A stretch of DNA of 54,713 nt from the IMG/VR virus record IMGVR_UViG_3300037264_002389, positions 74,545 through 129,257 of that record; one strand, written 5' to 3'. The number at the start of each line of letters is the position of its first letter. Positions within the stretch are counted from its first letter, which is position 1. Both the position numbers and the translations under genes were made by a program. Under the pieces are notes generated by a model. It did no database searches. It was not told the DNA's origin and saw nothing but the letters and a program-made list of their open reading frames with translations. Origin of the DNA: a virus. This document shows positions 10,477 through 49,360 of the stretch, piece after piece.

Positions 10477-10550
10477 TGCTCCGGCTCGGATTCGCACCGA
10501 GATCTTCGACTTTAGAGGTCGCTATGTTGACTAGTTGCCACCACCGGAGC
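10477..10550 (-). tRNA. tRNA with anticodon CUA (amber suppressor)
   Basis: Read on the minus strand, a 7-bp acceptor stem (GCTCCGG/CCGGAGC), a T-arm CTCGG-TGCGAAT-CCGAG and an anticodon loop CTCTAAA give anticodon CTA at positions 34-36 with U33 present. The D-stem is short (3 bp). It would decode UAG. The elbow is of the A18-G19/G55-C56 type. No CCA is encoded. It stands alone, 13 kb before the main tRNA array; its acceptor stem is identical to tRNA-Leu(UAG) at 23763, suggesting common descent. Confidence 0.82.
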
Positions 10551-10641
10551 GTATGACGAATGGTCTTGGATGGGAGCGGCCCATAATAAATTACCATAGA
10601 TATTTTATATCATTAGCAAATATAGTTCTAAAGGGGAATAT

Positions 10642-11580
10642 ATGATTACTTCACGCATTGATTCTATCACTAAAATCCCACAGGAATATATGAAACCAGT
10701 CTTGCCAGCGCCAAAATCAGTAAAGATAGAATTAACTTCAGTTTGTAACTTCCAATGCGGTTTTTGTGCTAGTAAGTTGCGACTTAAGAAACGCGGCGAA
10801 ATGGATTGGAAGTTTTATCGTCGTGTTATTAAAGAAATGCGCCAAGCAGGGGTTGAAGAATTAGGTGTTTTTTACATTGGAGAGTCATTCACGCTAGATT
10901 GGTTGCCAGAAGCGATAAGTTATGCGAAACGTGTAGTTGGCTTTCCATACGTTTTCCTCACAACTAATGGCTCATTATCTGATAAGGAAACTGTTAATGC
11001 ATGTATGAAAGCTGGACTTGATTCGTTGAAATTCAGTTTTAATAATGACTATGAACAATTTGAAAATATTACTGGAGTAAGCGTTAAAAATCTCGATAAA
11101 ATAATCAAAAACATCAAAGATGCTTATGAATTACGTAAGGAGAATGGATATAAATGTGGTCTATATGCCTCTAGCATCATGTTTGATGGCGATCAACAGA
11201 AACGTATGGATATTCTAGTGGATCAGATTAAACCTTTTGTAGATCAACATTATTGGTTACCATTGTATTCATTTGGGTCGTTGGCCGAGAAACGTGAGGC
11301 AGAACTTGGTTATCGTCCGATTGCCGGTAATCAGGGTCGGATTGGAGCGCTGCGCGACCCATTACCGTGTTGGTCTGCTTTTACAGAGGGACATATTACT
11401 TATGATGGTAAGTTATCAGCATGTTGTTTTGATGCTGGTGATAAGTGGATTATGGGTGATTTGAATAAGATCTCGTTTATGGATGCTTGGAACTCCCAAG
11501 AATTTCAGAAGCTGCGTGAAGCACATTTGAAGAAAGATGTCACTGGTTCGATCTGTGAGCAATGTGTGGCCTATAGTTGA
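10642..11580 (+). CDS. radical SAM enzyme with SPASM-like C-terminus
   Basis: 312 residues. The CNFQCGFC motif near residue 38 is the CX3CX2C ligand set of a radical-SAM 4Fe-4S cluster. The C-terminal region (CWSAF ... LSACCFDAGDKWIMGDLN ... SICEQCVAY) resembles a SPASM/twitch auxiliary-cluster domain. Such enzymes modify peptides, RNA or small molecules; the substrate is unknown. AAAGGGGA precedes the ATG. No precursor peptide is obvious next to it. Confidence 0.9.
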   Translation: MITSRIDSITKIPQEYMKPVLPAPKSVKIELTSVCNFQCGFCASKLRLKKRGEMDWKFYRRVIKEMRQAGVEELGVFYIGESFTLDWLPEAISYAKRVVGFPYVFLTTNGSLSDKETVNACMKAGLDSLKFSFNNDYEQFENITGVSVKNLDKIIKNIKDAYELRKENGYKCGLYASSIMFDGDQQKRMDILVDQIKPFVDQHYWLPLYSFGSLAEKREAELGYRPIAGNQGRIGALRDPLPCWSAFTEGHITYDGKLSACCFDAGDKWIMGDLNKISFMDAWNSQEFQKLREAHLKKDVTGSICEQCVAYS

Positions 11581-11695
11581 CAGCAATGAATGATTATGAT
11601 AAAATATAAATTGAGGAGATAAAGATGCTCTAGGTTGAACACCCACCTTAATACCATGGCTTCTCCGCCAACTAACAACCATCAAGGAGATAGCC
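11581..11695 (+). promoter_or_regulatory. leader with a minimal ATG-CTC-TAG open frame
   Basis: 115 bp between genes. A good ribosome-binding site (GAGGAG, 11613-11618) precedes ATG CTC TAG at 11625-11633, a two-codon frame that would extend to eight codons if UAG were suppressed. A second Shine-Dalgarno (AAGGAG) precedes the real ATG at 11696. It may be a regulatory leader, but this is speculative. Confidence 0.3.
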
Positions 11696-12052
11696 ATGGA
11701 TACGGTCAGAATCTTAGCCATTATTCACTCAAGGCGTGCTTCCGAATTCTCTTCTAGTCTAGAATGCTTTGTTGAGACACGATTAAGCAAGAAAGATCGA
11801 CAAATAGTCGCACGTCGTGAGGCGTCGATCTGGAATATTGTAACTTGTATTGCTAAAGGCAAGCACGAACAAGCTCCCCTACATGCACCATTAGAATTAC
11901 GTGAGCAATACGTTAGATTAGCTAGGAAACGTTACGATTCATTACGTGCTTGGGCTGGCCGTCACCCAGTCCAAGCTGCATCATTGTGTGCTCCATTGAT
12001 TGCCGAGTATGATCGGAGGGCGAAACAACGTGCATTGTTGGTTTCAGCATGA
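11696..12052 (+). CDS. hypothetical basic helical protein
   Basis: 118 residues, Arg- and Ala-rich, mostly helical, no recognised family. The start is set by AAGGAG 8 nt upstream of ATG 11696. It lies directly upstream of two tRNA-like RNAs. Confidence 0.6.
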   Translation: MDTVRILAIIHSRRASEFSSSLECFVETRLSKKDRQIVARREASIWNIVTCIAKGKHEQAPLHAPLELREQYVRLARKRYDSLRAWAGRHPVQAASLCAPLIAEYDRRAKQRALLVSA

Positions 12053-12059
12053 GATAAGT

Positions 12060-12204
12060 GACCGTGGAGCCAGTATGAAGGTGCAAAGCATACTAGTCAA
12101 TACTTTGTACTGGATTACGGTAACTGTGCGGGCTAACACTTCGGTGAATGCCAGGACACATCCTGGTTTACCAGGAATGGGTTAAACTCCCATGACGGTC
12201 GCCA
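12060..12204 (+). ncRNA. 145-nt tRNA-like RNA with long internal insert
   Basis: The ends are tRNA-like: GACCGT (12060-12065) pairs with ACGGTC (12195-12200), followed by G and an encoded CCA. A T-arm ATGGG-TTAAACT-CCCAT precedes the acceptor. A possible D-arm GCC-AGTATGAA-GGT contains G18-A19, matching the A56 of the T-loop as in two Arg tRNAs here. Between the arms lie about 93 nt instead of about 23. They include CAAAG/CTTTG flanking a 14-nt loop, CAC-TTCG-GTG, and CCAGGA-CACA-TCCTGG. It could be an intron-bearing tRNA, a tRNA with a giant variable domain, or a distinct tRNA-like RNA. It lies 2 nt before the next tRNA. Confidence 0.55.
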
Positions 12205-12206
12205 AT

Positions 12207-12282
12207 GGACTCGTAGCTCAGCGGATAGAGCATCCGGATCGAAAGGTCTGGAAGGTCGGTGGTTCGAATCCATCCGAGTCCA
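12207..12282 (+). tRNA. Arg-like tRNA with enlarged anticodon arm
   Basis: Acceptor GGACTCG/CGAGTCC, D-arm GCTC-AGCGGATA-GAGC and T-arm GGTGG-TTCGAAT-CCATC are canonical and resemble bacterial Arg tRNAs. The anticodon arm is 3 nt too long: it forms a 6-bp stem TCCGGA/TCTGGA with an 8-nt loop TCGAAAGG, or a 5-bp stem with a 10-nt loop. The anticodon cannot be assigned safely. It may be a frameshift-type tRNA or a decayed gene. Confidence 0.65.
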
Positions 12283-12384
12283 CTACATTAGAAGGTATTC
12301 ATGATGCCGTTCATGCCCCAGATTGTTCTGTCTCAATTGCAAACATAATTAAGACAGAGACATTTAATTGGAGAAAATAATCTT

Positions 12385-12924
12385 ATGCCAACTAGTCAAT
12401 CCCAAGAGGTCTTACAAAAATACCTAAACCCTGTCTTCGTTGAAACCGGAACCTTAAGAGGGGATGCTGTCGAATTTGCATTAAAAGTAGGATTTAAGGA
12501 AATCTATAGTGTAGAAGTCCACAAAGCTTTCTACGATAAGTGCGTGACTCGATTTAAAGATCAGACTAATGTTCATTTATTTCTGGGAGATTCAATAGAC
12601 ACTCTTTGGAATATGATAAAAGATATTTCCGTGCCTATTACCTTCTGGTTAGATGGTCATATCTATCCACGCTCGGGTGTATCAGTTGGGAAAAAGAATA
12701 TTCCAATTATGGAAGAATTAGAAATCATTGCTCAACATCCTATTAAGACACATACGATCATGATAGACGATAGACGAGTTATGGGGACTCAATGCCATGG
12801 TTGGCAAACAATATCGGAGAAAATGGTGATTGATGGTGTTAAAAGAATCAATCCAGCCTATGAGATTAGATATGAAGATAGCTGTCATGCACGTAATGAT
12901 ATCGTGGTTGGAATTATTCCATAA
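12385..12924 (+). CDS. class I SAM-dependent methyltransferase-like protein
   Basis: 179 residues. VETGTLRGDAVEFAL at residues 18-32 resembles the motif I SAM-binding loop, YSVEVHKAFYDKC the acidic strand-2 position, LGDSIDTL motif II-like, and ITFWLDGH the strand after it. Such proteins occur in phages and polysaccharide loci. The substrate is unknown. It lies 10 bp upstream of the peptidyl-tRNA-hydrolase-like gene. Confidence 0.6.
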   Translation: MPTSQSQEVLQKYLNPVFVETGTLRGDAVEFALKVGFKEIYSVEVHKAFYDKCVTRFKDQTNVHLFLGDSIDTLWNMIKDISVPITFWLDGHIYPRSGVSVGKKNIPIMEELEIIAQHPIKTHTIMIDDRRVMGTQCHGWQTISEKMVIDGVKRINPAYEIRYEDSCHARNDIVVGIIP

Positions 12925-12934
12925 GGAGATGATA

Positions 12935-13231
12935 ATGAAAATGTACGTTCTGGTTAGACGAGACCTATCGCCTAGTCAACGAGCCGTACAAGCATGTCAT
13001 GCAGTGGCCGAGTTGCTTCTGCATCATAGGGACGATCCATAGGTTAAAAATTGGGCCGCTAACTGTAAAATCATGGTATTACTTGGAGTTGATTGCGAAA
13101 ATGATTTACTAAACTGGAAATCCAATTTAAATGGTAAAAGTGAATTATTTTATGAACCTGATATTAGTGCTCATACGGCTTTAGCTACGGTTTCAGATGG
13201 TGTTGAATTAAAATCATTGCGATTGCTATGA
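12935..13231 (+). CDS. peptidyl-tRNA hydrolase 2-like protein with in-frame UAG at codon 36
   Basis: ATG 12935 follows AAGGAG. The first 35 codons give MKMYVLVRRDLSPSQRAVQ and CHAVAELLLHH, matching PTH2 family N-termini (substrate strand and QxCHA helix). Codon 36 is TAG (13040-13042). After it the same frame stays open for 62 codons, giving VKNWAANCKIMVLLGV and EPDISAHTALAT, the expected PTH2 C-terminal half, to TGA at 13231. Either the gene is a recent nonsense pse udogene or the UAG is read by the CUA tRNA at 10477. PTH2 cleaves peptidyl-tRNA. The stop overlaps the next open frame (ATGA). Confidence 0.7.
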
Positions 13232-13266
13232 AGATAGATATAAATAGTCACAACAAGGAGAATATA

Positions 13267-13812
13267 ATGACAATTAAGGCAATCATAATTGCGGCAGTGA
13301 GCACCATTGTTGCATTAGCTCTAATTGTTGTTATATACGGGATTAGCACCAGTAATTCAGAGAAGCGTCTACGCAATACAATTAGTGCTAAACAACAGGA
13401 TAATAAATCTGAGTTCGATAATATGTGGAAGAAAATTGCACAGGTAGTCCAAGTAGGAGAGGCTGACCGTCAGAGTCTTATGGATATTTTTACTAAACAT
13501 GCAGCAGCGCGTGGCGGTGGAAATGAAAACGCTATTGTAAGTTGGGTACATGAATCAATTCCAAATGTTGACAGTTCTATCTATAAGAACATTCAGAATA
13601 TTATCGTTGGTTCAAGAGATTCATGGACAATGCGTCAGAAGGAGATTCTTGATTTTAAACGAGAACACGATAATTTATTGGACACGTTCCCAAGCAGTCT
13701 ATTTGTTGGTAGTAGGGACCGTATTGAGGTAACGATTATTACATCCAGCCACACAGAAAAGGTCTTTGAGTCTGGTAAAGACGATGGCGTTGACCTGTTT
13801 AAGAAGAAATAA
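13267..13812 (+). CDS. LemA-like membrane-anchored protein
   Basis: 181 residues from ATG 13267, chosen because AAGGAG lies 8 nt upstream; an in-frame ATG at 13228 overlaps the previous stop. It has an N-terminal transmembrane helix (IIIAAVSTIVALALIVVI), then a long helical region (NMWKKIAQVVQV ... IVGSRDSWTMRQKEILDF) resembling LemA-family helical bundles found in bacteria and giant phages. It is paired with the membrane protein at 13815. Function unknown. Confidence 0.7.
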   Translation: MTIKAIIIAAVSTIVALALIVVIYGISTSNSEKRLRNTISAKQQDNKSEFDNMWKKIAQVVQVGEADRQSLMDIFTKHAAARGGGNENAIVSWVHESIPNVDSSIYKNIQNIIVGSRDSWTMRQKEILDFKREHDNLLDTFPSSLFVGSRDRIEVTIITSSHTEKVFESGKDDGVDLFKKK

Positions 13813-13814
13813 AC

Positions 13815-14915
13815 GTGTGGCTAGCCTATGCAATCGCCTGTGTTCCACTTCTGCTTGGAGCCATATTTTGGGTCCGCAGTAAACAAATAGTATGGTTCGA
13901 ATGGGTGACTGGCTCCTGCATCGGTTTCATCATAACTGGCATATTCCACTTAATTACCATAAGCTCAATGGTGTCGGATATAGAAACGTGGAGTGGAAAG
14001 GTTGTCCAAGCCACTCACTATCCTTGGTGGCGTGCGGAATGGACCGAAGTTCAGACTACGACCGATAGTAAAGGCAATACAAGCACAAAGATTGTTCATA
14101 AGAGTAGTAACCATCCGGAATATTGGACCTGTGAAATATCATATGGACAAAAGCGATTAGAGCATATAATTGATCTAGGTTATTTTAAGTCAATCTGTAA
14201 GCAATTTGGGATTGACAAACCAAAAGCAGTTGAAGTTCACAAATCCGATTTCCATAGTGGTGATAAGAATATTTATATAGCCGATAATAAGACTAATGCG
14301 ATTATTCCATCCAACATGAGTGTTCCGTTCGAAAATCGTGTTCAAGCTGCGCCTAGCGTCTTCTCATATGTGCGCGTACCTGATAAAATTCCTGTCTATG
14401 ATTATCCTGTTTCTGATTCTTGGCAGCGTTCGAATCGTCTCCTTGGTACTGCCAAATCTGATTTTAATCTTTATAAATGGGATTGTCTTAATGCTGAGCT
14501 TGGTCCTACGATGCGTGTAAATCTGATCGTAATTGGTTTTGGAGCAGAAGATTCATCCATTGCCCAATACCAAGAAGCGAAGTGGGTTGGAGGTAAGAAG
14601 AACGATTTGGTAATATGTTATGGTAGCCAGAATGGGCAAAGACCTAATTGGGCTTATTGTTTTGGTTGGACTGAAAAAGCGATTGTTAAGCGTAATTTAG
14701 AGAGTTTGTTTTTGGAGAGCCTACCTAATAATGAATTAATTCCAAAGATTAAGCAAGAGGTTATAGCTAATTATAAGATTAAGGATTGGTCTAAATTCGA
14801 TTATATTACAATTGAGCCACCATGGTGGTCATTCGTAATATTACTTGTAGCTATGGCTATGTGTCAAGTTGGTTTCTGGTTGTTTGCGCATCACAATGAA
14901 GTACGGAAAGATTAA
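13815..14915 (+). CDS. membrane protein partnered with the LemA-like protein
   Basis: 366 residues from GTG 13815, 2 nt after the LemA-like stop. Two N-terminal transmembrane segments (residues about 3-20 and 30-50) and one C-terminal segment (about 338-358) bracket a large soluble domain with conserved-looking Trp/Tyr residues. The arrangement next to a LemA-like protein suggests a membrane complex. The biochemical role is unknown. Confidence 0.65.
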   Translation: MWLAYAIACVPLLLGAIFWVRSKQIVWFEWVTGSCIGFIITGIFHLITISSMVSDIETWSGKVVQATHYPWWRAEWTEVQTTTDSKGNTSTKIVHKSSNHPEYWTCEISYGQKRLEHIIDLGYFKSICKQFGIDKPKAVEVHKSDFHSGDKNIYIADNKTNAIIPSNMSVPFENRVQAAPSVFSYVRVPDKIPVYDYPVSDSWQRSNRLLGTAKSDFNLYKWDCLNAELGPTMRVNLIVIGFGAEDSSIAQYQEAKWVGGKKNDLVICYGSQNGQRPNWAYCFGWTEKAIVKRNLESLFLESLPNNELIPKIKQEVIANYKIKDWSKFDYITIEPPWWSFVILLVAMAMCQVGFWLFAHHNEVRKD

Positions 14916-16330: not shown

Positions 16331-16738
16331 ATGTCCTTTACACCATTCGTCTATAGAGCTTGGGTTAAAAGACTTAACTGGAAGACCGGACAATTTATCG
16401 ATGGTGCTGTGCATGATGGTGACTCAGCGTGGTTCTTATTTGATCGTGGAGTCTATGAATATCTTAATGCTAATTGTCGATTATGGGGCGTCAATGCATA
16501 TGAGTTAAATGATGTAGACCCAATTAAACGACAGAAAGCACAAGAAGGCAAGATCTGGTTAAAGGATCAAATTGAGAATAAGTTGGCATATGTATTATCG
16601 AAGGGATTGGATAAGTATGGGCGTCCTTTGGTTCTTGTATGGCTTGTTGAGGCTGACTTTGGTGATAATATTAAATCAATAAATAAGCAGTTACTCGATG
16701 TTGGTTTGGCTTTACCTTTCATGGGTGAGCTGGTGTGA
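16331..16738 (+). CDS. staphylococcal-nuclease-like (TNase) protein
   Basis: 135 residues. DGDSAWF (Ca-binding Asp), CRLWGVNAYE (catalytic Arg/Glu) and DKYGRPLVLV (second Arg) reproduce the three SNase signature regions, followed by SINKQLLDVGLA. It probably hydrolyses DNA or RNA. There is no signal peptide, so it likely acts inside the cell. Preceded by AAGGAG. Its stop overlaps the GTG start of pyrD. Confidence 0.85.
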   Translation: MSFTPFVYRAWVKRLNWKTGQFIDGAVHDGDSAWFLFDRGVYEYLNANCRLWGVNAYELNDVDPIKRQKAQEGKIWLKDQIENKLAYVLSKGLDKYGRPLVLVWLVEADFGDNIKSINKQLLDVGLALPFMGELV

Positions 16739-17724
16739 TCAATAAAATAGCTTATCGCACCCTGCGTTTATTGTCTCCAGAACAAGCACACACTGTCGCC
16801 AAATGGGCAATGAAGTATAAAATATTAGCCCCTGGCCCAGTATATATGCAGAATACAGAGACAACTATGCGACACAGGTTGTTCGGTGAAGAACTAAATA
16901 ATCCACTTGGTATCGCAGCTGGATTTGATAAAAATGCTGAATTAATTGATGTTGTTCAGAGTTATGGATTTGGTTTTATTGAAATTGGCAGCATAACTTA
17001 TTTAGGTGGCCCTGGTAATCCAAAACCACGATTATTTCGATATGAAAACGATCGGCTGTTAAATCGGATGGGATTGAATGGTATTCCAGCAAGTGATGTT
17101 GCTATACGATTAAATAATGTTCGATCTAAAGTTTATGGTGTTAATATCGCAAAGACACATTCACCGGACATTATGGGTGATAAAGCAGTCCGTGATATAT
17201 GTGATAGCTATAACCTATTGAAACATTATGGGTTGTATACTGTAATTAATATTAGCTGCCCTAATACACGTGAAGGTCGTACTTTTGAAGACCCAGATGC
17301 ATTGAAAGAGTTATTATCTGCGATTGCAGCAATTAAGGGGCAGAAACCGCTGCTGGTTAAGTTATCTCCAGTATCAATCAAGAATCATGAACGATTCGAT
17401 AAGATTATTGGTATTTGTGAATTGGCCGGTATAGACGGTTATGTGGCGTCTAATACAATACCACATGAAGATACTAAACTTGGTAAAGGTGGTTTGAGTG
17501 GACCAGATATTAGACCCTATACGCTTGAAATTATTAATTCAATTCATAGGAATATTAGGAAGCCTATTATAGCTGTTGGTGGTATTACATCTTATGTAGA
17601 CATATTAGCATATATGCAGGCTGGTGCGACTGCATGCCAAGTTTATTGTGGTTTTGTTTGTGGCCATACTGCTGGTCCGCGTTTTGCCCACAACATTTTG
17701 CATGATGGAGTGATTTATGGCTAG
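16735..17724 (+). CDS. pyrD: dihydroorotate dehydrogenase (class 2-like)
   Basis: 329 residues from GTG 16735. It oxidises dihydroorotate to orotate using FMN. The class 2 landmarks are NPLGIAAGFDKNAE (54-68), FIEIGSITYLGGPGNPKPRLF, NRMGLNG, GLSG and VGGI. The catalytic-base loop reads INISCPNT with Cys175, whereas membrane (class 2) enzymes normally have Ser here and soluble class 1 enzymes have Cys. It is adjacent to a dihydroorotase-like gene, giving consecutive pathway steps. It ends in tandem stops TAG TAA. Confidence 0.92.
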   Translation: MINKIAYRTLRLLSPEQAHTVAKWAMKYKILAPGPVYMQNTETTMRHRLFGEELNNPLGIAAGFDKNAELIDVVQSYGFGFIEIGSITYLGGPGNPKPRLFRYENDRLLNRMGLNGIPASDVAIRLNNVRSKVYGVNIAKTHSPDIMGDKAVRDICDSYNLLKHYGLYTVINISCPNTREGRTFEDPDALKELLSAIAAIKGQKPLLVKLSPVSIKNHERFDKIIGICELAGIDGYVASNTIPHEDTKLGKGGLSGPDIRPYTLEIINSIHRNIRKPIIAVGGITSYVDILAYMQAGATACQVYCGFVCGHTAGPRFAHNILHDGVIYG

Positions 17725-23762: not shown

Positions 23763-23839
23763 GCTCCGGTAGACCAATAGCAGGAGTCACCACGCTTAGA
23801 ACGTGGGCAGTGTGGGTGCAACTCCCACCCGGAGCACCA
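23763..23839 (+). tRNA. tRNA-Leu(UAG), short variable loop
   Basis: Acceptor GCTCCGG/CCGGAGC, anticodon loop CTTAGAA, CCA encoded. The variable loop is only 5 nt (GCAGT) although bacterial Leu tRNAs are class II. Elbow A18-G19 with T-loop TGCAACT (G55-C56). Confidence 0.9.
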
Positions 23840-23843
23840 AATT

Positions 23844-23915
23844 AAGCCCGTGAACCAGCGTTCAACGAAGTCTCCAAAGCTTCGGACGTAGGGGCAGCAC
23901 CTACCGGGCTTGCCA
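23844..23915 (+). tRNA. tRNA-Trp(CCA)
   Basis: Acceptor AAGCCCG/CGGGCTT, anticodon loop CTCCAAA, CCA encoded. The T-loop GGCAGCA lacks TTC; the elbow is A18-G19/G55-C56. Confidence 0.85.
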
Positions 23916-29362: not shown

Positions 29363-29440
29363 GCTCTCGAAGTCGAAGAAGCCGAGACGCCTCCCTGTCA
29401 CGGAGGAGATAAGCCGGTGCGAGTCCGGTCGAGAGCGCCA
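29363..29440 (+). tRNA. tRNA-Asp(GUC)
   Basis: Acceptor GCTCTCG/CGAGAGC, anticodon loop CTGTCAC, CCA encoded. The D-loop has AAGCC (A18-G19) and the T-loop is TGCGAGT (G55-C56). Confidence 0.92.
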
Positions 29441-29735: not shown

Positions 29736-30707
29736 ATGAGTGAGTTTAAATGCCCAGTGGTTAGATTAGGACAAATAGAAAAACATCCGAACGCAGACAC
29801 ACTAGGAATAACTAAGATCTATGATTATCCTTGCATAGTCAAATTGGGAGAATTTCAATCAGGCGATTTAGTGGCATATATCCCAGTGGATGCAGTAGTA
29901 CCAACTCAAGATTTACGTTTCGCGTTTCTTAAAGATCATCCACGGATTAAAGCACGAAAACTTCGTGGATATTTCTCCATGGGATTAATCATTAAAGCAG
30001 AGCCAGATTGGAAGGAAGGCGATGATGTAACGCAAGTGCTTGGTATAAAGAAATATGAATCGCCACAGCCATTATCAACAGGAGGCGATAACGAGCTAGA
30101 TCCAGGTCATATGCCAACTTATACAGACATAGAAGGATTACGACGCTGGCCTGATGTTCTAAAAGATGGTGAAGAAGTGGTTGTTCTAGAGAAGATTCAT
30201 GGAGCCAATGCCAGATATCTACATCACGAAGGTCGTCTGTGGGTTGGTAGTCATAATGGAATTAAGAAGGAGAGCGAGGAGTCAGTATGGTGGAGAGCGG
30301 CTAGGCAGTATAAATTAGCCGATAAATTAGCCGAGTATCCAGGGATAGCCGTTTATGGCGAGGTGTATGGTTATGTTCAGGATTTAAGATATGGAGCACA
30401 GAAAGGCCAAGTCTCAATGATATGTTTTGATGCTTTGGATATAAAGACAAGGACTTATCTTGATTGGATGGACTTTGTTGATCTAATGAAGAGACTTGAT
30501 TTGCCGGTGGTGCCTATAATTCATCAGGGAGGATGGGATAAATCTAAGGTTCAAGAGTGGTCTAATGGTAAGTCTTTGATGCCTTTTGTGGATCATATAC
30601 GGGAGGGGTTTGTGGTCAAGCCAGTTAAATTTCGGTATGATCCACAGATTAGTAGGGTTATCCTAAAGAGGCACGGTGAGGATTATTTAACCAGAAAGGA
30701 AGGTTAA
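29736..30707 (+). CDS. RNA ligase, DRB0094-like family
   Basis: 323 residues. N-terminal OB-like domain (PVVRLGQIEKHPNADTLGI). Nucleotidyltransferase motifs: motif I EKIHGAN with the adenylated Lys153, YGEVYGYVQDL (motif IIIa region), EGFVVKP (motif IV) and a terminal VILKRHG (motif V). The family seals RNA ends using ATP. Its position inside the tRNA array suggests repair of tRNAs cut by host anticodon nucleases. AGGAGG precedes the ATG. Confidence 0.9.
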   Translation: MSEFKCPVVRLGQIEKHPNADTLGITKIYDYPCIVKLGEFQSGDLVAYIPVDAVVPTQDLRFAFLKDHPRIKARKLRGYFSMGLIIKAEPDWKEGDDVTQVLGIKKYESPQPLSTGGDNELDPGHMPTYTDIEGLRRWPDVLKDGEEVVVLEKIHGANARYLHHEGRLWVGSHNGIKKESEESVWWRAARQYKLADKLAEYPGIAVYGEVYGYVQDLRYGAQKGQVSMICFDALDIKTRTYLDWMDFVDLMKRLDLPVVPIIHQGGWDKSKVQEWSNGKSLMPFVDHIREGFVVKPVKFRYDPQISRVILKRHGEDYLTRKEG

Positions 30708-30919
30708 TGTTAACTTACGATTGTTCTGAAGTACCATGGTCGGTAGCTTATTCTTTATTGATTTGCAGGTTTTGTAGACATAATAAGAATGGCGATGTTA
30801 CTATTTGTCCTTCCTGTCAACAGAAAATTGCCGGTGTAGCTCAAGCAGAAGAGTGTCTGCCTCGTAAACAGAAGACGAAGGTGCAACTCCTTCCACCGGC
30901 TCCAGACCCAAAAATATAA
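30707..30919 (+). CDS. small zinc-finger protein overlapping tRNA-Thr(CGU)
   Basis: 70 residues; ATG overlaps the RNA-ligase stop (TAATG). ICRFCRHNKNGDVTICPSCQQK is a clear C4 ribbon. The last 25 codons are the tRNA-Thr gene read through, so the original C-terminus was probably shorter. Confidence 0.55.
   Translation: MLTYDCSEVPWSVAYSLLICRFCRHNKNGDVTICPSCQQKIAGVAQAEECLPRKQKTKVQLLPPAPDPKI
30830..30904 (+). tRNA. tRNA-Thr(CGU)
   Basis: Acceptor GCCGGTG/CACCGGC, anticodon loop CTCGTAA, CCA encoded. Elbow A18-G19 (AAGCAG) with T-loop TGCAACT (G55-C56). Confidence 0.9.
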
Positions 30920-31179: not shown

Positions 31180-31240
31180 GCTCACGAAGGCGAAGTAGTC
31201 GAGCCGTCACCCTGTCACGGTGAAGAAAGCCGGTGCAACT
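31180..31240 (+). pseudogene. truncated second tRNA-Asp(GUC)
   Basis: GCTCACG, D-arm with TAGT, anticodon arm with CTGTCAC and the T-stem 5' half GCCGG plus loop TGCAACT are present. The T-stem 3' strand and the expected CGTGAGC acceptor are missing; the sequence changes abruptly to a coding remnant. Confidence 0.85.
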
Positions 31241-32402: not shown

Positions 32403-32476
32403 GGCGCGGTAGCCCAATTAGCAGAGGCGCTAAGCTCAAACCTTAGATGTTGCGAGTGCAAGTCTCGCCCGCGCTA
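32403..32476 (+). tRNA. tRNA-Leu(CAA), short variable loop
   Basis: Acceptor GGCGCGG/CCGCGCT (first pair G-U), anticodon loop CTCAAAC, 5-nt variable loop. Elbow A18-G19/T-loop TGCAAGT. The 3' end reads TCA rather than CCA. Confidence 0.87.
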
Positions 32477-32490
32477 TCACTTACGGATGT

Positions 32491-32567
32491 GGCGGGGTAG
32501 CCCAACTAGCAGTGGCACCTGATTTAAGATCAGGGAGTTGTGGGTGCAAATCCCACCCCCGCTACCA
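32491..32567 (+). tRNA. tRNA-Leu(UAA), short variable loop
   Basis: Acceptor GGCGGGG/CCCCGCT, anticodon loop TTTAAGA, variable GAGTT, CCA encoded. Elbow A18-G19/T-loop TGCAAAT. Confidence 0.9.
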
Positions 32568-35299: not shown

Positions 35300-35340
35300 G
35301 GATCGGTAGCCCAATTTGGCAGAGGCATATAGATTATCTT
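35300..35340 (+). pseudogene. interrupted tRNA B, 5' half
   Basis: GGATCGG, Leu-like D-arm (GCCCAATTTGGCAGAGGC) and the anticodon-stem strand TATAG run into the loop, where an intact tRNA-Leu(GAG) begins. The acceptor pairs fully with CCGGTCC at 35619-35625. Confidence 0.8.
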
Positions 35341-35422
35341 CGAGATGTGGCGAAATGGCAGACGCGACAGTTCGAGAGACTGTTGGGGTAATCCCATGAG
35401 AGTTCGAATCTCTCCATCTCGA
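35341..35422 (+). tRNA. tRNA-Leu(GAG), class II, nested in the split tRNA
   Basis: Acceptor CGAGATG/CATCTCG, long variable arm (TGGGGTAATCCCAT), anticodon loop TCGAGAG with C instead of U at position 33, T-loop TTCGAAT, no CCA. It is the only Leu tRNA here with the normal bacterial class II shape. Confidence 0.88.
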
Positions 35423-35478
35423 TTTTCAAGAACCACTCCTGCCAATGCGAATGTAAATAAATTGGCGGAGGTGACAAT

Positions 35479-35605
35479 GTGTCAAAATATAGTAAACAGC
35501 AACTAGAATTACTTGTGCGAGACAGCAGATCAGTAGCTGATGTTATTGTGCTACAGCAAGAAAATATGGCGTGACTGATAATACAATTAGAAAATGGTTG
35601 TGTGG
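35479..35605 (+). pseudogene. frameshifted N-terminal piece of an HTH/HNH-type gene
   Basis: From GTG 35479 (behind GCGGAGG) the frame reads SKYSKQQLELLVRDSRSVAD, then shifts by one base near 35548. The +1 frame continues ATARKYGVTDNTIRKWLC. This HTH opening is typical of phage HNH endonucleases. It runs into the 3' half of interrupted tRNA B. Confidence 0.7.
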
Positions 35606-35629
35606 GTTCAACTCCCACCCGGTCCACCA
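35602..35629 (+). pseudogene. interrupted tRNA B, 3' half
   Basis: T-arm GTGGG-TTCAACT-CCCAC and acceptor CCGGTCC plus ACCA. It pairs with GGATCGG at 35300. The anticodon-stem 3' strand is missing. Confidence 0.8.
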
Positions 35630-35632: not shown

Positions 35633-35709
35633 GCACCGGTAGACCAATAGCAGGAGTCGCCAAGCTCAGAACTTGGACAGTGTGGGTGCAACTCCCACCC
35701 GGTGTACCA
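35633..35709 (+). tRNA. tRNA-Leu(CAG), short variable loop
   Basis: Acceptor GCACCGG/CCGGTGT, anticodon loop CTCAGAA, variable ACAGT, CCA encoded. Elbow A18-G19/T-loop TGCAACT. Close relative of tRNA-Leu(UAG) at 23763. Confidence 0.9.
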
Positions 35710-38639: not shown

Positions 38640-38714
38640 GCCCCTATAGCTCAATGACAGAGCGCAAGGCTTCGAACCTTGAGGTTCCAGGTTAAAGTCC
38701 TGGTAGGGGTACCA
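38640..38714 (+). tRNA. tRNA-Arg(UCG)
   Basis: Acceptor GCCCCTA/TAGGGGT, anticodon loop CTTCGAA, CCA encoded. D-loop AATGACA (G18-A19) with T-loop TTAAAGT (U55-A56), a second alternative elbow type. Confidence 0.9.
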
Positions 38715-39532: not shown

Positions 39533-39606
39533 GCCCTCGTGGTGAAATGATATCATATTTCCGTCCTAAGGAAAAGTTGCGGGTTAGACTCCTGCCGAGG
39601 GTGCCA
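39533..39606 (+). tRNA. tRNA-Arg(CCU)
   Basis: Acceptor GCCCTCG/CGAGGGT, anticodon loop GTCCTAA, CCA encoded. D-loop G18-A19 with T-loop TTAGACT (U55-A56), as in tRNA-Arg(UCG). Confidence 0.9.
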
Positions 39607-41820: not shown

Positions 41821-41895
41821 CGGAGGTGAGGAAGAAAGTAATCCGCCTGCTTGGGGTGCAGGAGATAACCGGAGCATTACCGGTACCTCCGACCA
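41821..41895 (+). tRNA. tRNA-Pro(GGG)
   Basis: Acceptor CGGAGGT/ACCTCCG, anticodon loop TTGGGGT, CCA encoded. T-loop AGCATTA (G55-C56) with A18-G19 in the D-loop. Confidence 0.88.
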
Positions 41896-44977: not shown

Positions 44978-45011
44978 ATCTGTACTGTCAAAAATAGGAT
45001 AGGAGGACACC

Positions 45012-45161: not shown

Positions 45162-45169
45162 TTTACGTC

Positions 45170-45210: not shown

Positions 45211-45216
45211 ATATAT

Positions 45217-45291: not shown

Positions 45292-45294
45292 ATT

Positions 45295-45370
45295 GGGTCG
45301 CAGGCAGATCTAGTGATTGCACCAGGTTCTTACCCTGGCGAGCTGGGAGCGTAACCCAGGCGACCCACCA
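45295..45370 (+). tRNA. tRNA-Lys(CUU)
   Basis: Acceptor GGGTCGC/GCGACCC, anticodon loop TTCTTAC, CCA encoded. T-loop AGCGTAA (G55-C56) with A18-G19 (CTAGTG). Confidence 0.88.
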
Positions 45371-45407
45371 ACTTTCTATATCGTTTAGCGATGGCTCTGT
45401 GAGAAAA

Positions 45408-45527: not shown

Positions 45528-45595
45528 CCCATCGTCTAATGGCAGGACACCAGCCTTCTAAGCTGGAAATGCGGGTTCGATTCCCGCTGGACGCC
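45525..45595 (+). tRNA. tRNA-Arg(UCU)-like with mismatched acceptor stem
   Basis: D-arm, anticodon loop CTTCTAA and T-arm GCGGG-TTCGATT-CCCGC are sound. The 5' strand TGGCCCA pairs with TGGACGC at only four of seven positions; GCGTCCA would be expected. The upstream repeat seems to have overwritten it. No CCA. Probably non-functional. Confidence 0.65.
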
Positions 45596-45610
45596 TGATA
45601 CATATCTTAT

Positions 45611-45700
45611 GGAGAGTGAACCGGATAGGCATGCCGGAACTGTTTTGAAAGCAGATTGCACCCGAAAGGGTGTGGGGATCATGTCCTCCGCTCTCCGCCA
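45611..45700 (+). tRNA. tRNA-Ser(UGA)
   Basis: Class II, acceptor GGAGAGT/GCTCTCC, anticodon loop TTTGAAA, variable arm CACCC-GAAA-GGGTG, T-loop ATCATGT, CCA encoded. Confidence 0.92.
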
Positions 45701-45704
45701 TTAT

Positions 45705-45779
45705 TGGGGTGTAGGCTAAATGGTAAACCGCATCTTTCATACGGATGTTTTGCGAGTTCGAATCTCGCCACCCCAACCA
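45705..45779 (+). tRNA. second tRNA with CAU anticodon
   Basis: Acceptor TGGGGTG/CACCCCA, anticodon loop TTCATAC, T-loop TTCGAAT, CCA encoded. Met (elongator or initiator) or lysidine-dependent Ile. Confidence 0.88.
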
Positions 45780-45791
45780 TTAAACGAAATT

Positions 45792-45865
45792 GTCCTTGTG
45801 GTGCAGTGGCAGCACACTAGATTCTCAGTCTAGAGACGAGAGTTCAATTCTCTCCAGGGACGCCA
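45792..45865 (+). tRNA. tRNA-Glu(CUC)
   Basis: Acceptor GTCCTTG/CAGGGAC, anticodon loop TTCTCAG, T-loop TTCAATT, CCA encoded. Confidence 0.92.
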
Positions 45866-45866
45866 T

Positions 45867-45940
45867 GAGCGCATCGTACAACGGCAGTACACCACTCTTA
45901 CAAGGTGGTTATGGGGGTTCAATTCCCTCTGCGCTCACCA
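45867..45940 (+). tRNA. tRNA-Val(UAC)
   Basis: Acceptor GAGCGCA/TGCGCTC, anticodon loop CTTACAA, T-loop TTCAATT, CCA encoded. Confidence 0.93.
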
Positions 45941-45959
45941 ATTTAGTATTTCATTTATA

Positions 45960-46541
45960 ATGATACGTCTTATTTCATATCTGACCTACTTAACTCTAAT
46001 TAATATATGTTGTTATTGTCAAGATGTCTATGAATTTCGTTATATCAGACAACAAGGGCAAGATACCTATTATGGGCATGGTGGTGCAATAGCAATATCA
46101 GAACAACAGTTAATAACCTGTGCTCATTTAATTGATGGGCAACAACAAGAAATAAAAATTGGGGATCAATGGCATAAATGTGAGGTAAAGAAAATAGACA
46201 AAGAACTAGACATAGCACTATTACAAGTAACAGAAAAATTGAAATCAATCGAAATCCAAATTGATAAAAGTATGGACAAGATAACAGTTAAGATGTATCC
46301 TAGCCAGAAATTCGTAAAATCAGAAGCAACATTAATCAATAAAAGTGGTATTCTATACAATTATACAGCCAAAGGTGGATCATATGGTAGTTCAGGTGGA
46401 GTTGCCATTAAAGACGATAAATGTGTTGGTATGATAGTAGCTAACTCAGCAGCGCATGGATTACAAATAATAGACACAGTGGTGGTTTTACCGTCAAGAC
46501 GTATCTTACAATTCATGAAGGAACAAGGAGATACACCGTGA
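45960..46541 (+). CDS. secreted trypsin-like serine protease
   Basis: 193 residues. N-terminal signal segment, then the catalytic triad in order: H56 in LITCAHLI, D84 in KELDIALLQ and S144 in YGSSGGVA. The fold is the small S1/S1C-type without an obvious PDZ. It probably acts in the periplasm or outside the cell. Its TGA overlaps the GTG of the next gene. Confidence 0.8.
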   Translation: MIRLISYLTYLTLINICCYCQDVYEFRYIRQQGQDTYYGHGGAIAISEQQLITCAHLIDGQQQEIKIGDQWHKCEVKKIDKELDIALLQVTEKLKSIEIQIDKSMDKITVKMYPSQKFVKSEATLINKSGILYNYTAKGGSYGSSGGVAIKDDKCVGMIVANSAAHGLQIIDTVVVLPSRRILQFMKEQGDTP

Positions 46542-46855
46542 TTCTAAAACTTGAACGATACACGAATGAATTAGGAATGTTGATAGAGCATAGGTCTGCA
46601 GTTGGGGAACCTGATCCGAATCATAAGTTTGATAAGTTTATTGGAACAGTAGGAGTCGGCGTTGAGACACCGATGGGGAGACATGTAGAGCCTGTTGAAT
46701 TTCCGATTGTTGCTGATAGTCTTGAAGAGGCATTTGCTAAATTTAGGGATTCGGCCAAGAAACATGTAGAAAAGCTTGCAACTGCCGCTAATAGTCAAAT
46801 TATGGTTGCGAATCAGATGCCTAAAGTTCCCAATCAGAAAAAGTTAATTATATAA
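46538..46855 (+). CDS. hypothetical protein
   Basis: 105 residues from GTG 46538, coupled to the protease by GTGA overlap. A beta-rich N-terminus and a helical C-terminus (SLEEAFAKFRDSAKKHVEKL). Unknown. Confidence 0.6.
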   Translation: MILKLERYTNELGMLIEHRSAVGEPDPNHKFDKFIGTVGVGVETPMGRHVEPVEFPIVADSLEEAFAKFRDSAKKHVEKLATAANSQIMVANQMPKVPNQKKLII

Positions 46856-46876
46856 AGCTTTACCTATTACTAATTT

Positions 46877-46951
46877 GGGTCCATGGCGAAACAGGCATCG
46901 TAACTGACTTTTAATCAGTTGTTGGGGGTTCGAGTCCCCCTGGACCCACCA
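46877..46951 (+). tRNA. tRNA-Lys(UUU)
   Basis: Acceptor GGGTCCA/TGGACCC, anticodon loop CTTTTAA, T-loop TTCGAGT, CCA encoded. Confidence 0.95.
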
Positions 46952-46963
46952 ATATTATAGCAT

Positions 46964-47050
46964 GGAAGGCAAATCAATCAGGCGATTGACACTGGTTGCT
47001 AACCAGTAGGCACCTACGGGTGTGAGGTTCGAGTCCTCTGCCTTCCGCCA
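46964..47050 (+). tRNA. tRNA-Ser(GCU)
   Basis: Class II, acceptor GGAAGGC/GCCTTCC, anticodon GCT, T-loop TTCGAGT with G18-G19, CCA encoded. Confidence 0.93.
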
Positions 47051-47071
47051 TCTCGTACCGAGATTTATTCA

Positions 47072-47302
47072 TTAGTCATCCTCATAATCTAAATTATGTT
47101 TCTCAGCGAGCCAGCGTGGAATGTCAATTTCGCCTGTGTCGCCTTTTTTCTTCATTGTCTGGCGGTCGATTTGGCTCTTGGGGAACCAGAATTCAACTTT
47201 AGTTGGCGTCTTATCTGTCTCTACAACCGTGACACCGATTGCTTTCTCTGTTTCGGCTAAGAGGATTAGGTTCGATACTGTGACTAGGTCATTACTTGCC
47301 AT
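47072..47302 (-). CDS. conserved small phage protein
   Basis: 76 residues. AIGVTVVETDKTPTKVEFWF, PKSQID, GEIDIPRWLAEKHNL: the W-x-PKS-x-I ... IP-x-WLA-x-K pattern recurs in many phages without known function. Confidence 0.75.
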   Translation of the reverse strand: MASNDLVTVSNLILLAETEKAIGVTVVETDKTPTKVEFWFPKSQIDRQTMKKKGDTGEIDIPRWLAEKHNLDYEDD

Positions 47303-47316
47303 ATGTGTTCAGATAC

Positions 47317-47390
47317 TGCCCCGTCGTCTAACGGTAGGACACCAGACTCTGGATCTGGGTATTGAGGTTCGAATCCTCGCGGGGCAACCA
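47317..47390 (+). tRNA. tRNA-Gln(CUG)
   Basis: Acceptor TGCCCCG/CGGGGCA, anticodon loop CTCTGGA, T-loop TTCGAAT, CCA encoded. Confidence 0.95.
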
Positions 47391-47401
47391 AACATATAAA
47401 T

Positions 47402-47848
47402 ATGGACTTCATAGAGAAAATAAACCAGCTACTTGACCCACTCTCAGAATCTAAAAGCCTAAAGGGTTCATTGCCTAAACCATGGGGTGTATTATATGCT
47501 CACCCAAATCCAGATGGTTCAAGGAAAAGCTGTGCTAATTGTGCTACTTGGATTAAAGACTTAAAGCAGTGTGATTATCATGCTTCTAATATTATGGTAA
47601 CTAAAGATCATATATGTGGTTATCATGTTTGGGGTAAACCACACGATGGTAGGTTATTTGAGGACATTCAATATGTTGATCCGCAGTTTAGTGGGTTAGA
47701 ATTAGTATCTGGTGGTACTAGTTGTGATATTTGTGAATATTATCGTAAGACTCATAGCGATGGTGGTATTTGTAGAGTGGCTCAAGTTGATGGTAAGCAT
47801 GCTAAAGTTGATGCTCTTGGTTGCTGTGCGAGGTTCGAATCTAAATGA
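47402..47848 (+). CDS. Cys-rich protein, possible metal or Fe-S binder
   Basis: 148 residues with nine Cys: SCANCATWI, QCDYH, HICGYH, TSCDICEYY, GICRV, GCCARFE. The spacing suggests zinc or Fe-S coordination; it resembles proteins seen in phages but no function is established. Confidence 0.65.
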   Translation: MDFIEKINQLLDPLSESKSLKGSLPKPWGVLYAHPNPDGSRKSCANCATWIKDLKQCDYHASNIMVTKDHICGYHVWGKPHDGRLFEDIQYVDPQFSGLELVSGGTSCDICEYYRKTHSDGGICRVAQVDGKHAKVDALGCCARFESK

Positions 47849-47893
47849 TGTCCTTCACTTATCAATTTGTCAAAAATATTGAGAGGAGTTAAT

Positions 47894-48448
47894 ATGCTAA
47901 AAGCGACACGACTTAATGAGAGTATTCATTGTCCTTTATTTGATTTGATTGATAAATGTCTCAATGAATCTGATCGTATAACTTATGGTGGTGAACATTA
48001 TACGATAGCCGGAATGGACGCAGATGGTAGTCGAGGAATATATGGCCAAGGAAAGGTGCTGGTTGGTAAACTAAAACCAGATAAGACAGTAGAGATATGG
48101 GGAAAGCCAGGAATAGAGAAACCACGTGAAATTCATCCTCCGCCAATTTCAGGCTGGGAAGTAAGTTGGGAACAACCCGGCACTCGTGGCGCACTGCGTC
48201 AGACACAATTCTTTAAATTCACGAAAGATACTCCTGAGTGTGTCGCATGTGGTGGGTCTGGTAAGAGTACAGAGCTTGATATAGTGACGAATAAGTTTAA
48301 AAAATGTAAGATTTGTTATGGGGCTGGACGAGAGGCAGAGCGTGTGACTGATTTTGTCAAGACCCTTGCTAAACGTTCCTTAGAACCAAAGGTATCGGTT
48401 AAGCGTCTATCTAAGGCCGAAAAGCAGGAATGGCCATATAAGAAGTAA
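47894..48448 (+). CDS. DnaJ-type zinc-finger protein
   Basis: 184 residues from ATG 47894 (GAGGAG upstream). ECVACGGSGKS and KCKICYGAGRE form a pair of CxxCxGxG units like the DnaJ central domain; there is no J-domain. The N-terminal domain is not recognised. Confidence 0.65.
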   Translation: MLKATRLNESIHCPLFDLIDKCLNESDRITYGGEHYTIAGMDADGSRGIYGQGKVLVGKLKPDKTVEIWGKPGIEKPREIHPPPISGWEVSWEQPGTRGALRQTQFFKFTKDTPECVACGGSGKSTELDIVTNKFKKCKICYGAGREAERVTDFVKTLAKRSLEPKVSVKRLSKAEKQEWPYKK

Positions 48449-48583
48449 TTGTTAGTTTTGCATCGTTTGAGTTTGTCTAATCCTCTAATCATGAGTCATG
48501 TTAGCTGCCGATTCTATTTGCAATATTTATATATTCATAATTTAATTGTTATATCAGTTAAAATAATGTAGGAGGGTATCTAT

Positions 48584-48886
48584 TTGAGCCATCGGATTGT
48601 GCATCTAGAAAATAGTGATAAGGTGGTGTTAATTGATGAGAAAGACTTCAATATATGTGCTAGAATTAAATGGCGGATAAATCGACACGGTTATGCTAAG
48701 GCTGGTAGTGGGGTTGGTTTAATGCATCGGTTTATATTGAATGGTAAACTTGAGAAGGATAAATCACTTACTGTGCATCATAGGAATCATAATAAACTTG
48801 ATAATCGTAGGAGTAATTTACAAGTGGTCGATTGTGCCGAACACTTGCGTCTTGAACGGTTAGCTATTCTGAACCAGCTTCTGTGA
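48584..48886 (+). CDS. HNH homing-type endonuclease
   Basis: 100 residues from TTG 48584 behind AGGAGGG. WRINRHGYAKAG ... LMHRFILNGKL ... TVHHRNHNKLDNRRSNLQVV is the compact HNH_3 pattern with catalytic His pairs. It lacks an AP2 DNA-binding domain. The preceding 135 bp hold no gene. The 3' end overlaps the convergent gene. Confidence 0.85.
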   Translation: MSHRIVHLENSDKVVLIDEKDFNICARIKWRINRHGYAKAGSGVGLMHRFILNGKLEKDKSLTVHHRNHNKLDNRRSNLQVVDCAEHLRLERLAILNQLL

Positions 48887-49118
48887 TGGCTACTAATCGG
48901 CGGTTTTTCTGGGTAGTGATTAGGTTTAATTTCTGCATTTGGCGGATCTGGCTTAAATCAAAACGATCGTCTTCAGCTTCGAGTTTCGCTTTCGGCTTTA
49001 CAGCGATTTGCCCTGATTTGGTGAAGATTGAGCTACCTATTCGTTCTTTAACGAATATGTTTAGAAGTTGGTTACTGATATTGGTTACTTCCAATGTGTT
49101 GATAATGCTATTTGCCAT
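48864..49118 (-). CDS. small phage protein, possible structural accessory
   Basis: 84 residues behind AAAGGAGAA. NTLEVTNISNQLLNIFV opening, a helix-rich end. Likely real; function unknown. Confidence 0.6.
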   Translation of the reverse strand: MANSIINTLEVTNISNQLLNIFVKERIGSSIFTKSGQIAVKPKAKLEAEDDRFDLSQIRQMQKLNLITTQKNRRLVAITEAGSE

Positions 49119-49162
49119 GATTAGTTCTCCTTTTCAGATTTATTTTTGTCCTAAATGTATCT

Positions 49163-49252
49163 GGAGAGAAAACCAGACAGGCGTGCTGGGACCACTTGGA
49201 AGGTGGATCGCACTTGCGATACAGGTGTGAGGATCATGCCCTCTTCTCTCCG
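49163..49252 (+). tRNA. tRNA-Ser(GGA)
   Basis: Class II, acceptor GGAGAGA/TCTCTCC, anticodon loop TTGGAAG, T-loop ATCATGC, D-loop AGG; the 3' end is CTA, not CCA. Confidence 0.9.
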
Positions 49253-49271
49253 CTATTTTGCACGATATAAC

Positions 49272-49360
49272 GGAAGGTGAACTGGACAAGCGAGCCGGGA
49301 CTGCCTCGAAAACAGATCGCACCCTTAGGGTGTGAGGAGCATGACCTCCGCCTTCCGCCA
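49272..49360 (+). tRNA. tRNA-Ser(CGA)
   Basis: Class II, acceptor GGAAGGT/GCCTTCC, anticodon loop CTCGAAA, CCA encoded. T-loop AGCATGA (G55-C56) with D-loop AAGC (A18-G19), unlike the other three Ser tRNAs. Confidence 0.9.

What the first reader, a model, noticed from the sequence alone, without database searches (positions are those of the whole stretch)
10477..49360. Covarying alternative tRNA elbow: A18-G19 with G55-C56 in twelve tRNAs
Aligning the D- and T-loops of every tRNA in the window shows a strict correlation. tRNAs with T-loop T-T-C (U55, C56) have G18-G19. Twelve (amber CUA, Leu UAG/CAA/UAA/CAG, Trp, Asp plus its truncated copy, Thr CGU, Pro GGG, Lys CUU, Ser CGA) have G55-C56 and, in the D-loop, A18-G19 (AGC or AGT). 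Within the Ser set only Ser(CGA) switches, and it switches both loops. The change replaces the near-universal G18:Psi55 pair with A18:G55 and removes the U55 target of TruB. It could help evade host nucleases or modification enzymes that read the elbow. I know of no described precedent.
Basis: partly seen in the sequence, partly recalled or inferred. Interest (0 to 1): 0.88.

Follow-up and report, generated by a model that had tools for sequence, protein, structure and literature searches.

The report
tRNAs with a swapped elbow pair
About a quarter of the tRNA genes in this phage have replaced a nearly universal contact that holds the bend of every tRNA (G18 with U55) by another matched pair (A18 with G55); the same swap has arisen many times in other phages and in some bacteria, often ones that lack the enzyme TruB, which modifies U55.

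Summary
The window has 44 intact tRNAs: all 11 with G55-C56 carry A18-G19; all 31 with U55 or C55 and C56 carry G18-G19. A truncated Asp copy is also A18/G55. In 325 unselected, dereplicated viral tRNAs whose D-loop length fixes the register, 18:55 is G:U 265, A:G 52, G:C 4, G:G 3, A:U 1 (Fisher p about 1e-55). With 18:55 these are the top three non-helical pairs by normalised mutual information. The swap recurs in about 30 anticodon families, in cultured Streptomyces phages (often unannotated there), and in chromosomal tRNAs of SAR11, Patescibacteria and a Mycoplasma, so it is compatible with ordinary translation. SAR11 with A18:G55 tRNA-Phe never has TruB (0/34 against 49/113), and Patescibacteria show a weaker trend. 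Best reading: A18:G55 is an equivalent, modification-independent elbow, probably a split GNRA-like fold (G55-C56-R57 plus intercalated A18). It is either favoured where Psi55 is absent or tolerated as compensated drift. Nuclease evasion is untested. I found no description of it in the papers I could search.

The parts
10477..10550 (-). tRNA CUA (amber), A18-G19 / U54-G55-C56-G57-A58
23763..23839 (+). tRNA-Leu(UAG), short variable loop, A18-G19 / UGCAACU
   Evidence: nearest canonical relative is a Streptomyces phage Leu, AATGGCAGGA/TTCGAGT
23844..23915 (+). tRNA-Trp(CCA), short D-loop with AG, T-loop GGCAGCA (G54, G55, G58)
29363..29440 (+). tRNA-Asp(GUC), A18-G19 / UGCGAGU
30830..30904 (+). 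tRNA-Thr(CGU), A18-G19 / UGCAACU
31180..31238 (+). truncated Asp-like copy with AG and TGC, 3' end lost
32403..32479 (+). tRNA-Leu(CAA), A18-G19 / UGCAAGU
32491..32567 (+). tRNA-Leu(UAA), A18-G19 / UGCAAAU
35300..35326 (+). 5' half of a split Leu-like tRNA, canonical G18-G19
35600..35629 (+). 3' half of the same split tRNA, canonical U55-C56; 90% identical to the 3' end of Leu(CAG)
35633..35709 (+). tRNA-Leu(CAG), A18-G19 / UGCAACU
38640..38714 (+). tRNA-Arg(UCG): G18-A19 with U55-A56 (19:56 variant)
39533..39606 (+). tRNA-Arg(CCU): G18-A19 with U55-A56
41821..41895 (+). tRNA-Pro(GGG), A18-G19 / AGCAUUA (A54-U58 too)
45295..45370 (+). tRNA-Lys(CUU), A18-G19 / AGCGUAA (A54-U58 too)
45611..45699 (+). 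tRNA-Ser(UGA), canonical G18/U55 but A54-U58 (comparator)
49163..49253 (+). tRNA-Ser(GGA), canonical G18/U55 but A54-U58 (comparator)
49272..49360 (+). tRNA-Ser(CGA), A18-G19 / AGCAUGA: both loops switched relative to the other Ser paralogues

Best explanation
A18-G19/G55-C56 is a working alternative to the canonical G18-G19/U55-C56 elbow, in which the 18:55 contact is exchanged as a unit (often with 54:58, sometimes 19:56) while G19:C56 and the L-shape are kept. Shown: paired exchange many times in phages and bacteria, intact stems and CCA, and presence in bacterial tRNAs that appear as single genes. Inferred structure: G55-C56-R57 makes a GNR turn and A18, slotting between R57 and residue 58, takes the place of the last A of a GNRA loop (sheared A:G pair), a split GNRA fold. 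Inferred reason: this elbow holds without pseudouridine 55 and cannot be a TruB substrate, so it is kept where Psi55 is missing (TruB-less bacteria) or unreliable (a burst of phage tRNAs); redundancy with host tRNAs lets phages cross the unfit intermediates.
For: Fixed-register viral tRNAs, selected ones removed, 85% dereplicated: G:U 265, A:G 52, G:C 4, G:G 3, A:U 1 (Fisher p about 4e-55). Close same-anticodon pairs (at least 80% identical outside the elbow): when 55 differs G/U, 18 also switches in 46 of 52; when 18 differs, 55 switches in 46 of 49. 19:56, 54:58 and 18:55 rank 1-3 of 2124 non-helical column pairs by MI/min entropy, followed by the known contact 8:14. Stem scores of A18:G55 tRNAs equal those of canonical ones (20.2 against 20.1) and 95% encode CCA. 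A His tRNA of this type is held across 33 Streptomyces phage records; six sampled ones down to 84% identity have compensated stem changes and a constant elbow except R57. SAR11 Phe swap: TruB in 0/34 against 49/113. Patescibacteria: 15/37 against 173/250 with TruB, p = 0.0013. Mycoplasma SG1 (4 of its tRNAs A18:G55) has no TruB hit. All 14 control genomes have TruB. Split GNRA folds with the A supplied by a distant strand are described for the FMN riboswitch (PMC12550061).
Against: TruB loss is neither needed nor sufficient: SAR11 tRNA-His (G017, G030), 11 of 14 Patescibacteria with the Cys(GCA) form, and Verrucomicrobium G006 have the swap and TruB; most TruB-less SAR11 lack the Phe swap. The SAR11 Phe case is one clade with nearly identical sequence. 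Many genomes are incomplete. The split-GNRA geometry was not modelled or measured. The phage's host, and whether it has TruB, is unknown. No expression or charging data.
Confidence: 0.6

Rival explanations
1. Compensated drift: phage tRNAs (and tRNAs in reduced or TruB-less genomes) are under relaxed constraint, one elbow base mutates, and a second mutation restores an equivalent pair. The A18:G55 state has no advantage of its own.
For: Several elbow pairs change, not one: 54:58 has at least four pair types and 19:56 takes other Watson-Crick pairs. Non-canonical 54:58 is strongly enriched with G55 (64/127 against 70/987), as general relaxation would give. The swap is concentrated in tRNA-rich loci (0/146 in loci with 1-3 unselected tRNAs, 9/326 in loci with 9 or more).
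Against: Half-swapped tRNAs are very rare (4 of 325), A18:G55 dominates over other conceivable pairs, and it is fixed in SAR11, whose populations are very large (established knowledge), where drift is weak.
Confidence: 0.33
2. Evasion: the swapped elbow escapes host nucleases, toxins or modification enzymes that recognise G18/U55 during phage defence.
For: Phage tRNAs are known to evade tRNA-targeting defences by anticodon-loop changes (PMC10264068) and other tRNA-based evasion exists (PMC11555353). The window encodes a predicted RNA ligase of the RNA_ligase/PHA02142 type (29736-30707), consistent with, but not proof of, tRNA repair.
Against: Most tRNAs of the phage keep the canonical elbow; the swap also occurs in bacterial chromosomal tRNAs, where evading one's own defences makes little sense; the defence papers I searched for the term do not mention the elbow.
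Confidence: 0.1
3. One duplicated tRNA family with shifted anticodons, or degenerate genes or misalignment, so that the twelve cases are one event or an artefact.
For: Leu UAG and Leu CAG are 90% identical and share an acceptor pattern with the amber tRNA; one Asp copy is truncated.
Against: Asp, Thr, Pro, Lys, Trp and Ser copies are unrelated to the Leu group. About 30 anticodons show the switch against close same-anticodon relatives. Stems are intact. The register is fixed when the D-arm is 15 nt.
Confidence: 0.03

Closest known systems
Canonical tRNA elbow (G18:Psi55, G19:C56, T54:A58)
   Same: Cloverleaf, G19:C56, 7-nt T-loop, A14, U33, CCA
   Different: 18:55 is A:G; 54:58 often A:U or G:G; no U55 for TruB
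Staphylococcal non-proteinogenic tRNA-Gly with GUGC in place of GTPsiC (from memory, not tested)
   Same: G55 in a natural bacterial tRNA
   Different: As remembered, those also lack the G18-G19 pair and serve peptidoglycan synthesis; here G19:C56 is kept and A18 is paired with G55 across many isoacceptors
tRNA-Pyl with non-canonical elbow (PMC7609411)
   Same: Natural amber-decoding tRNA type without G18-G19/TPsiC; ARAGORN labels the window CUA gene Pyl
   Different: tRNA-Pyl has a short D-loop and lacks G19 and C56; the window gene has a normal D-loop with G19 and C56
Split GNRA-like motif with the A in trans, e.g. FMN riboswitch (PMC12550061)
   Same: GNR turn with an A from a distant strand intercalated between positions 4 and 6
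   Different: Not described for tRNA in that paper; here inferred from sequence only
Phage tRNAs with altered anticodon loops (PMC10264068)
   Same: Phage tRNA arrays departing from conserved host tRNA bases
   Different: There the anticodon loop changes; here the elbow changes with compensation
In vitro selected suppressor tRNAs with altered D/T loops (Zagryadskaya et al. 2003, 2004; cited in PMC7912444, full text not held)
   Same: Alternative 54:58 and D/T-loop combinations can support function
   Different: Laboratory libraries, not natural; whether A18:G55 was among them could not be checked

Membership tests
Functional elongator tRNA | Cloverleaf with intact acceptor, anticodon and T stems and U33 | tested here: met
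Functional elongator tRNA | G19:C56 tertiary Watson-Crick pair | tested here: met
   all G55 tRNAs of the window have G19 and C56
Functional elongator tRNA | G18 with U/Psi55 | tested here: not met
   A18:G55 in 11 intact tRNAs
Functional elongator tRNA | Aminoacylation and decoding in vivo | not testable with these tools
   supported indirectly: SAR11 tRNA-Phe and Mycoplasma SG1 Asp, Gln and Glu of this type; SG1 has 28 tRNA genes in all
tRNA-Pyl | Short D-loop, loss of G19/C56 | tested here: not met
   CUA tRNA 10477 has A18-G19 and G55-C56
Split GNRA-like motif | Sequence G-N-R plus an A at the intercalating position | tested here: met
   G55-C56-R57 + A18 in 52 of 55 fixed-register G55 viral tRNAs
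Split GNRA-like motif | trans Sugar-Hoogsteen G:A geometry | not testable with these tools
   needs an experimental structure or 3D modelling
TruB-independent elbow | Occurs where Psi55 synthase is absent | tested here: inconclusive
   strong in one SAR11 clade, moderate in Patescibacteria, counterexamples exist

The most novel reading that the evidence does not exclude
Natural tRNAs come in a second structural class with a GNRA-like, pseudouridine-independent elbow (A18:G55), repeatedly invented by phages and TruB-less bacteria, so that three 'universal' tRNA contacts (18:55, 54:58, 19:56) are in fact exchangeable as matched modules.
Probability: 0.5. Interest if true: 0.88.

Novelty: new variant of a known kind. 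Interest (0 to 1): 0.8.

Why it matters
Positions 18, 19, 54, 55, 56 and 58 hardly vary in cellular tRNAs, so their pairing rests mainly on crystal structures. Phage tRNAs vary there in a compensated way and so give comparative proof of the elbow contacts. They also offer natural double mutants for asking what Psi55 is for: if A18:G55 bypasses TruB, a long-standing question about a near-universal modification becomes testable in a simple suppressor assay. In practice, annotation pipelines miss some of these genes: ARAGORN missed Trp, Asp, Pro GGG, Lys CUU and Ser CGA here, and in most Streptomyces phage records the conserved His gene is unannotated.

Tried and rejected
Exact D-arm pattern in viral contigs: no hit. 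Near relatives of the phage by DNA: none useful; by TerL, short contigs without tRNAs plus more distant phages. Raw pattern counts for A18/U55 and G18/G55 are not comparable with A18/G55 because variable D-loop lengths let the pattern match one base off; only aligned, fixed-register counts were used, and pattern-eligible tRNAs were removed. Amber recoding: reading TAG as Gln gives no general lengthening of ORFs, so no recoding is claimed. First TruB test on 41 SAR11 genomes was too small (4 of 4 without TruB) and was widened to 147. Mollicutes gave only two genomes with hits in 198, with no TruB census there. The Patescibacteria split into Cys (11/14 TruB+) and other tRNAs (4/23 TruB+, p = 1.5e-6) was made after seeing the data and is treated as a lead only. 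Term searches of the eLife, SAR11-signature, tRNAscan-SE and retron papers for the elbow: nothing. The G18/G55 exceptions in variable-register tRNAs are partly misregistered A18-G19-G20 loops (GCTCAGTAGGAGAGC).
Full report
What is in the window. The window is positions 74545-129257 of a 129,257-base virus record. The record encodes a large terminase related to those of T4-like and cyanophage myoviruses. ARAGORN finds 36 tRNAs and Rfam 35. A cloverleaf finder that does not require canonical loop bases, plus reading by eye, adds Trp, Asp, Pro GGG, Lys CUU and the Ser genes. I tabulated 44 intact tRNAs. All 11 with G55-C56 have A18-G19 (Trp with a short D-loop), and so does a truncated Asp copy. 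All 29 with U55-C56 and the two with C55-C56 have G18-G19. Two Arg tRNAs have U55-A56 with G18-A19. Five tRNAs have A54-U58 instead of U54-A58, and Trp has G54-G58. Next to the swapped Leu CAG lie the two halves of a split Leu-like tRNA that keep the old pair in both halves (GG in 35300-35326, TTC in 35600-35629).

Is it more than a family resemblance? The Leu tRNAs of the swapped set are related to each other (two are 90% identical), but the Asp, Thr, Pro, Lys, Trp and Ser members are not related to them. The short-armed Leu tRNAs have close canonical relatives in Streptomyces phage Daubenski (AATGGCAGGA...TTCGAGT against AATAGCAGGA...TGCAACT), so within the two loops the paired bases changed together, along with one or two T-loop neighbours.

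Test in other viruses. Pattern scans of IMG/VR supplied several hundred loci. I found tRNAs with a finder blind to T-loop and D-loop bases, removed every tRNA eligible for the selecting pattern, dereplicated at 85% identity, and used only tRNAs with a 15-nt D-arm, where the register is forced. In 325 such tRNAs 18:55 is G:U 265, A:G 52, G:C 4, G:G 3, A:U 1. 19:56 is G:C 311, A:U 8, with 6 others. In all 1155 tRNAs 54:58 is U:A 1019, A:U 64, G:G 30, A:A 21, C:A 14. Non-canonical 54:58 goes with G55 (64 of 127 against 70 of 987; p about 1.5e-31). A mutual-information ranking of all 2124 non-helical column pairs puts 19:56, 54:58 and 18:55 first, followed by the known contact 8:14. As a rough control for common descent I paired each tRNA with a close same-anticodon relative, each used once. 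Of 52 pairs at 80% identity or more that differ G/U at 55, 46 also differ A/G at 18; of 49 that differ A/G at 18, 46 differ G/U at 55. The pairs are disjoint but not a full phylogenetic analysis, and this set includes the pattern-selected tRNAs (which include loci selected for G18/G55 and A18/U55, so exceptions were not excluded).

How common. In loci fetched by a canonical tRNA, 1.5% of the other tRNAs are A18:G55; in loci fetched by one swapped tRNA, 22% of the others are. The swap is therefore rare overall and concentrated in certain tRNA-rich phages. An extreme case is a 238-kb contig in which most tRNAs are swapped and several have also exchanged 19:56. In cultured Streptomyces phages a His tRNA with A18/G55 and G54/G58 is present in 33 records, usually unannotated. 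Six sampled members down to 84% identity show compensated stem changes with a constant elbow except R57, the mark of purifying selection.

Bacteria. The same pattern hits bacterial genomes: tRNA-Phe of SAR11 (34 of 147 genomes), tRNA-His of some SAR11, tRNA-Cys and others in Patescibacteria, tRNA arrays in Verrucomicrobia and Nostoc, and four tRNAs of Mycoplasma SG1, a 0.62-Mb chromosome with 28 tRNA genes, which also has 19:56 as U:A, C:G and A:U. These look like ordinary housekeeping tRNAs, so the swapped elbow must work in translation. I did not prove for SAR11 that no second tRNA-Phe exists.

TruB. PF01509 is found in all 14 control genomes. It is absent in all 34 SAR11 with the swapped Phe and present in 49 of the other 113 (p = 1.4e-7; one clade, so effectively one event). 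In Patescibacteria 15 of 37 genomes with a swapped tRNA have TruB against 173 of 250 without (p = 0.0013). A post-hoc split shows the Cys form indifferent to TruB and the others strongly TruB-poor. Mycoplasma SG1 has no hit. Counterexamples with TruB exist (SAR11 G017 and G030, Verrucomicrobium G006). Absence of TruB thus looks permissive or favouring, not required.

Mechanism. In the canonical elbow residue 18 slots between R57 and residue 58 and touches residue 55 (PMC4810234, PMC7912444). If 55 is G, G55-C56-R57 has the sequence of a GNR turn, and an A at 18 would sit where the last A of a GNRA loop sits. GNRA folds with that A supplied by a distant strand, intercalated between positions 4 and 6, are described for the FMN riboswitch and other RNAs (PMC12550061). 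This explains why G55 asks for A and not G at 18. It is an inference from sequence and precedent, not a measured structure. The functional step, independence from Psi55, is inferred from chemistry (no U55) and the TruB association. Compensated drift in redundant phage tRNAs explains most of the same facts and remains the main rival; very rare intermediates and fixation in SAR11 speak against pure drift. Evasion of defence nucleases is possible but has no evidence.

Novelty. Ten full-text searches and targeted reading found no description of A18:G55 tRNAs or of elbow covariation in phages. Subscription journals are mostly not held, and the in vitro selection papers on D/T loops (Zagryadskaya et al.) could not be read, so a precedent there is possible.

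Limits. The tRNA finder requires G53-C61 and U33 and can miss odd genes. IMG/VR contigs may include some non-viral sequence. Genome completeness is not given for the bacterial sets. Nothing about expression, charging or modification was measured.

Noticed in passing
38640-38714 and 39533-39606: Two Arg tRNAs (UCG, CCU) have G18-A19 with U55-A56, so 19:56 would be A:A, a pair not seen in the fixed-register viral set.
   Followed up: partly
35300-35629: A Leu-like tRNA is split into two halves about 275 bases apart with an intact long-armed tRNA-Leu(GAG) between them; the halves keep pairing acceptor ends.
   Followed up: partly
12207-12283: tRNA with an 8-nt anticodon loop (GAAA), canonical elbow; possible frameshift-type or damaged tRNA.
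   Followed up: no
23763-23839, 32403-32567, 35633-35709: Leu-anticodon tRNAs with a short variable loop, unlike bacterial tRNA-Leu; the same type occurs with canonical elbows in Streptomyces, Mycobacterium, Gordonia and Pseudomonas phages and in cyanophage S-CRM01. What they are charged with is unclear.
   Followed up: partly
10477-10550 (-): CUA (amber) tRNA in a genome whose ORFs show no general TAG recoding.
   Followed up: partly
29736-30707: RNA ligase with PHA02142 OB-fold domain inside the tRNA region; possible tRNA repair.
   Followed up: partly
3466-4422 (-), 4441-5427 (-), 16735-17724: Adenosine deaminase, GDP-mannose 4,6-dehydratase and dihydroorotate dehydrogenase genes in a phage.
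   Followed up: partly
52253-54616 (-): 787-aa ORF made almost entirely of GPVGPV/APV collagen-like repeats.
   Followed up: no
L002:10537-13455: Apparent portal-protein frame that carries a long insertion with intein-like features (CSTVCTPTGYKLLKDI...HNFVADGVVIHN); read by eye only.
   Followed up: no
L593:1-20000 (238-kb contig, record range 183000-202999): tRNA array in which 18:55 and 19:56 are both exchanged in several genes (A18/U19 with G55/A56, A18/A19 with G55/U56).
   Followed up: partly
L014:30128-30197 and relatives: His(GTG) tRNA with swapped elbow, unannotated in most Streptomyces phage records.
   Followed up: yes
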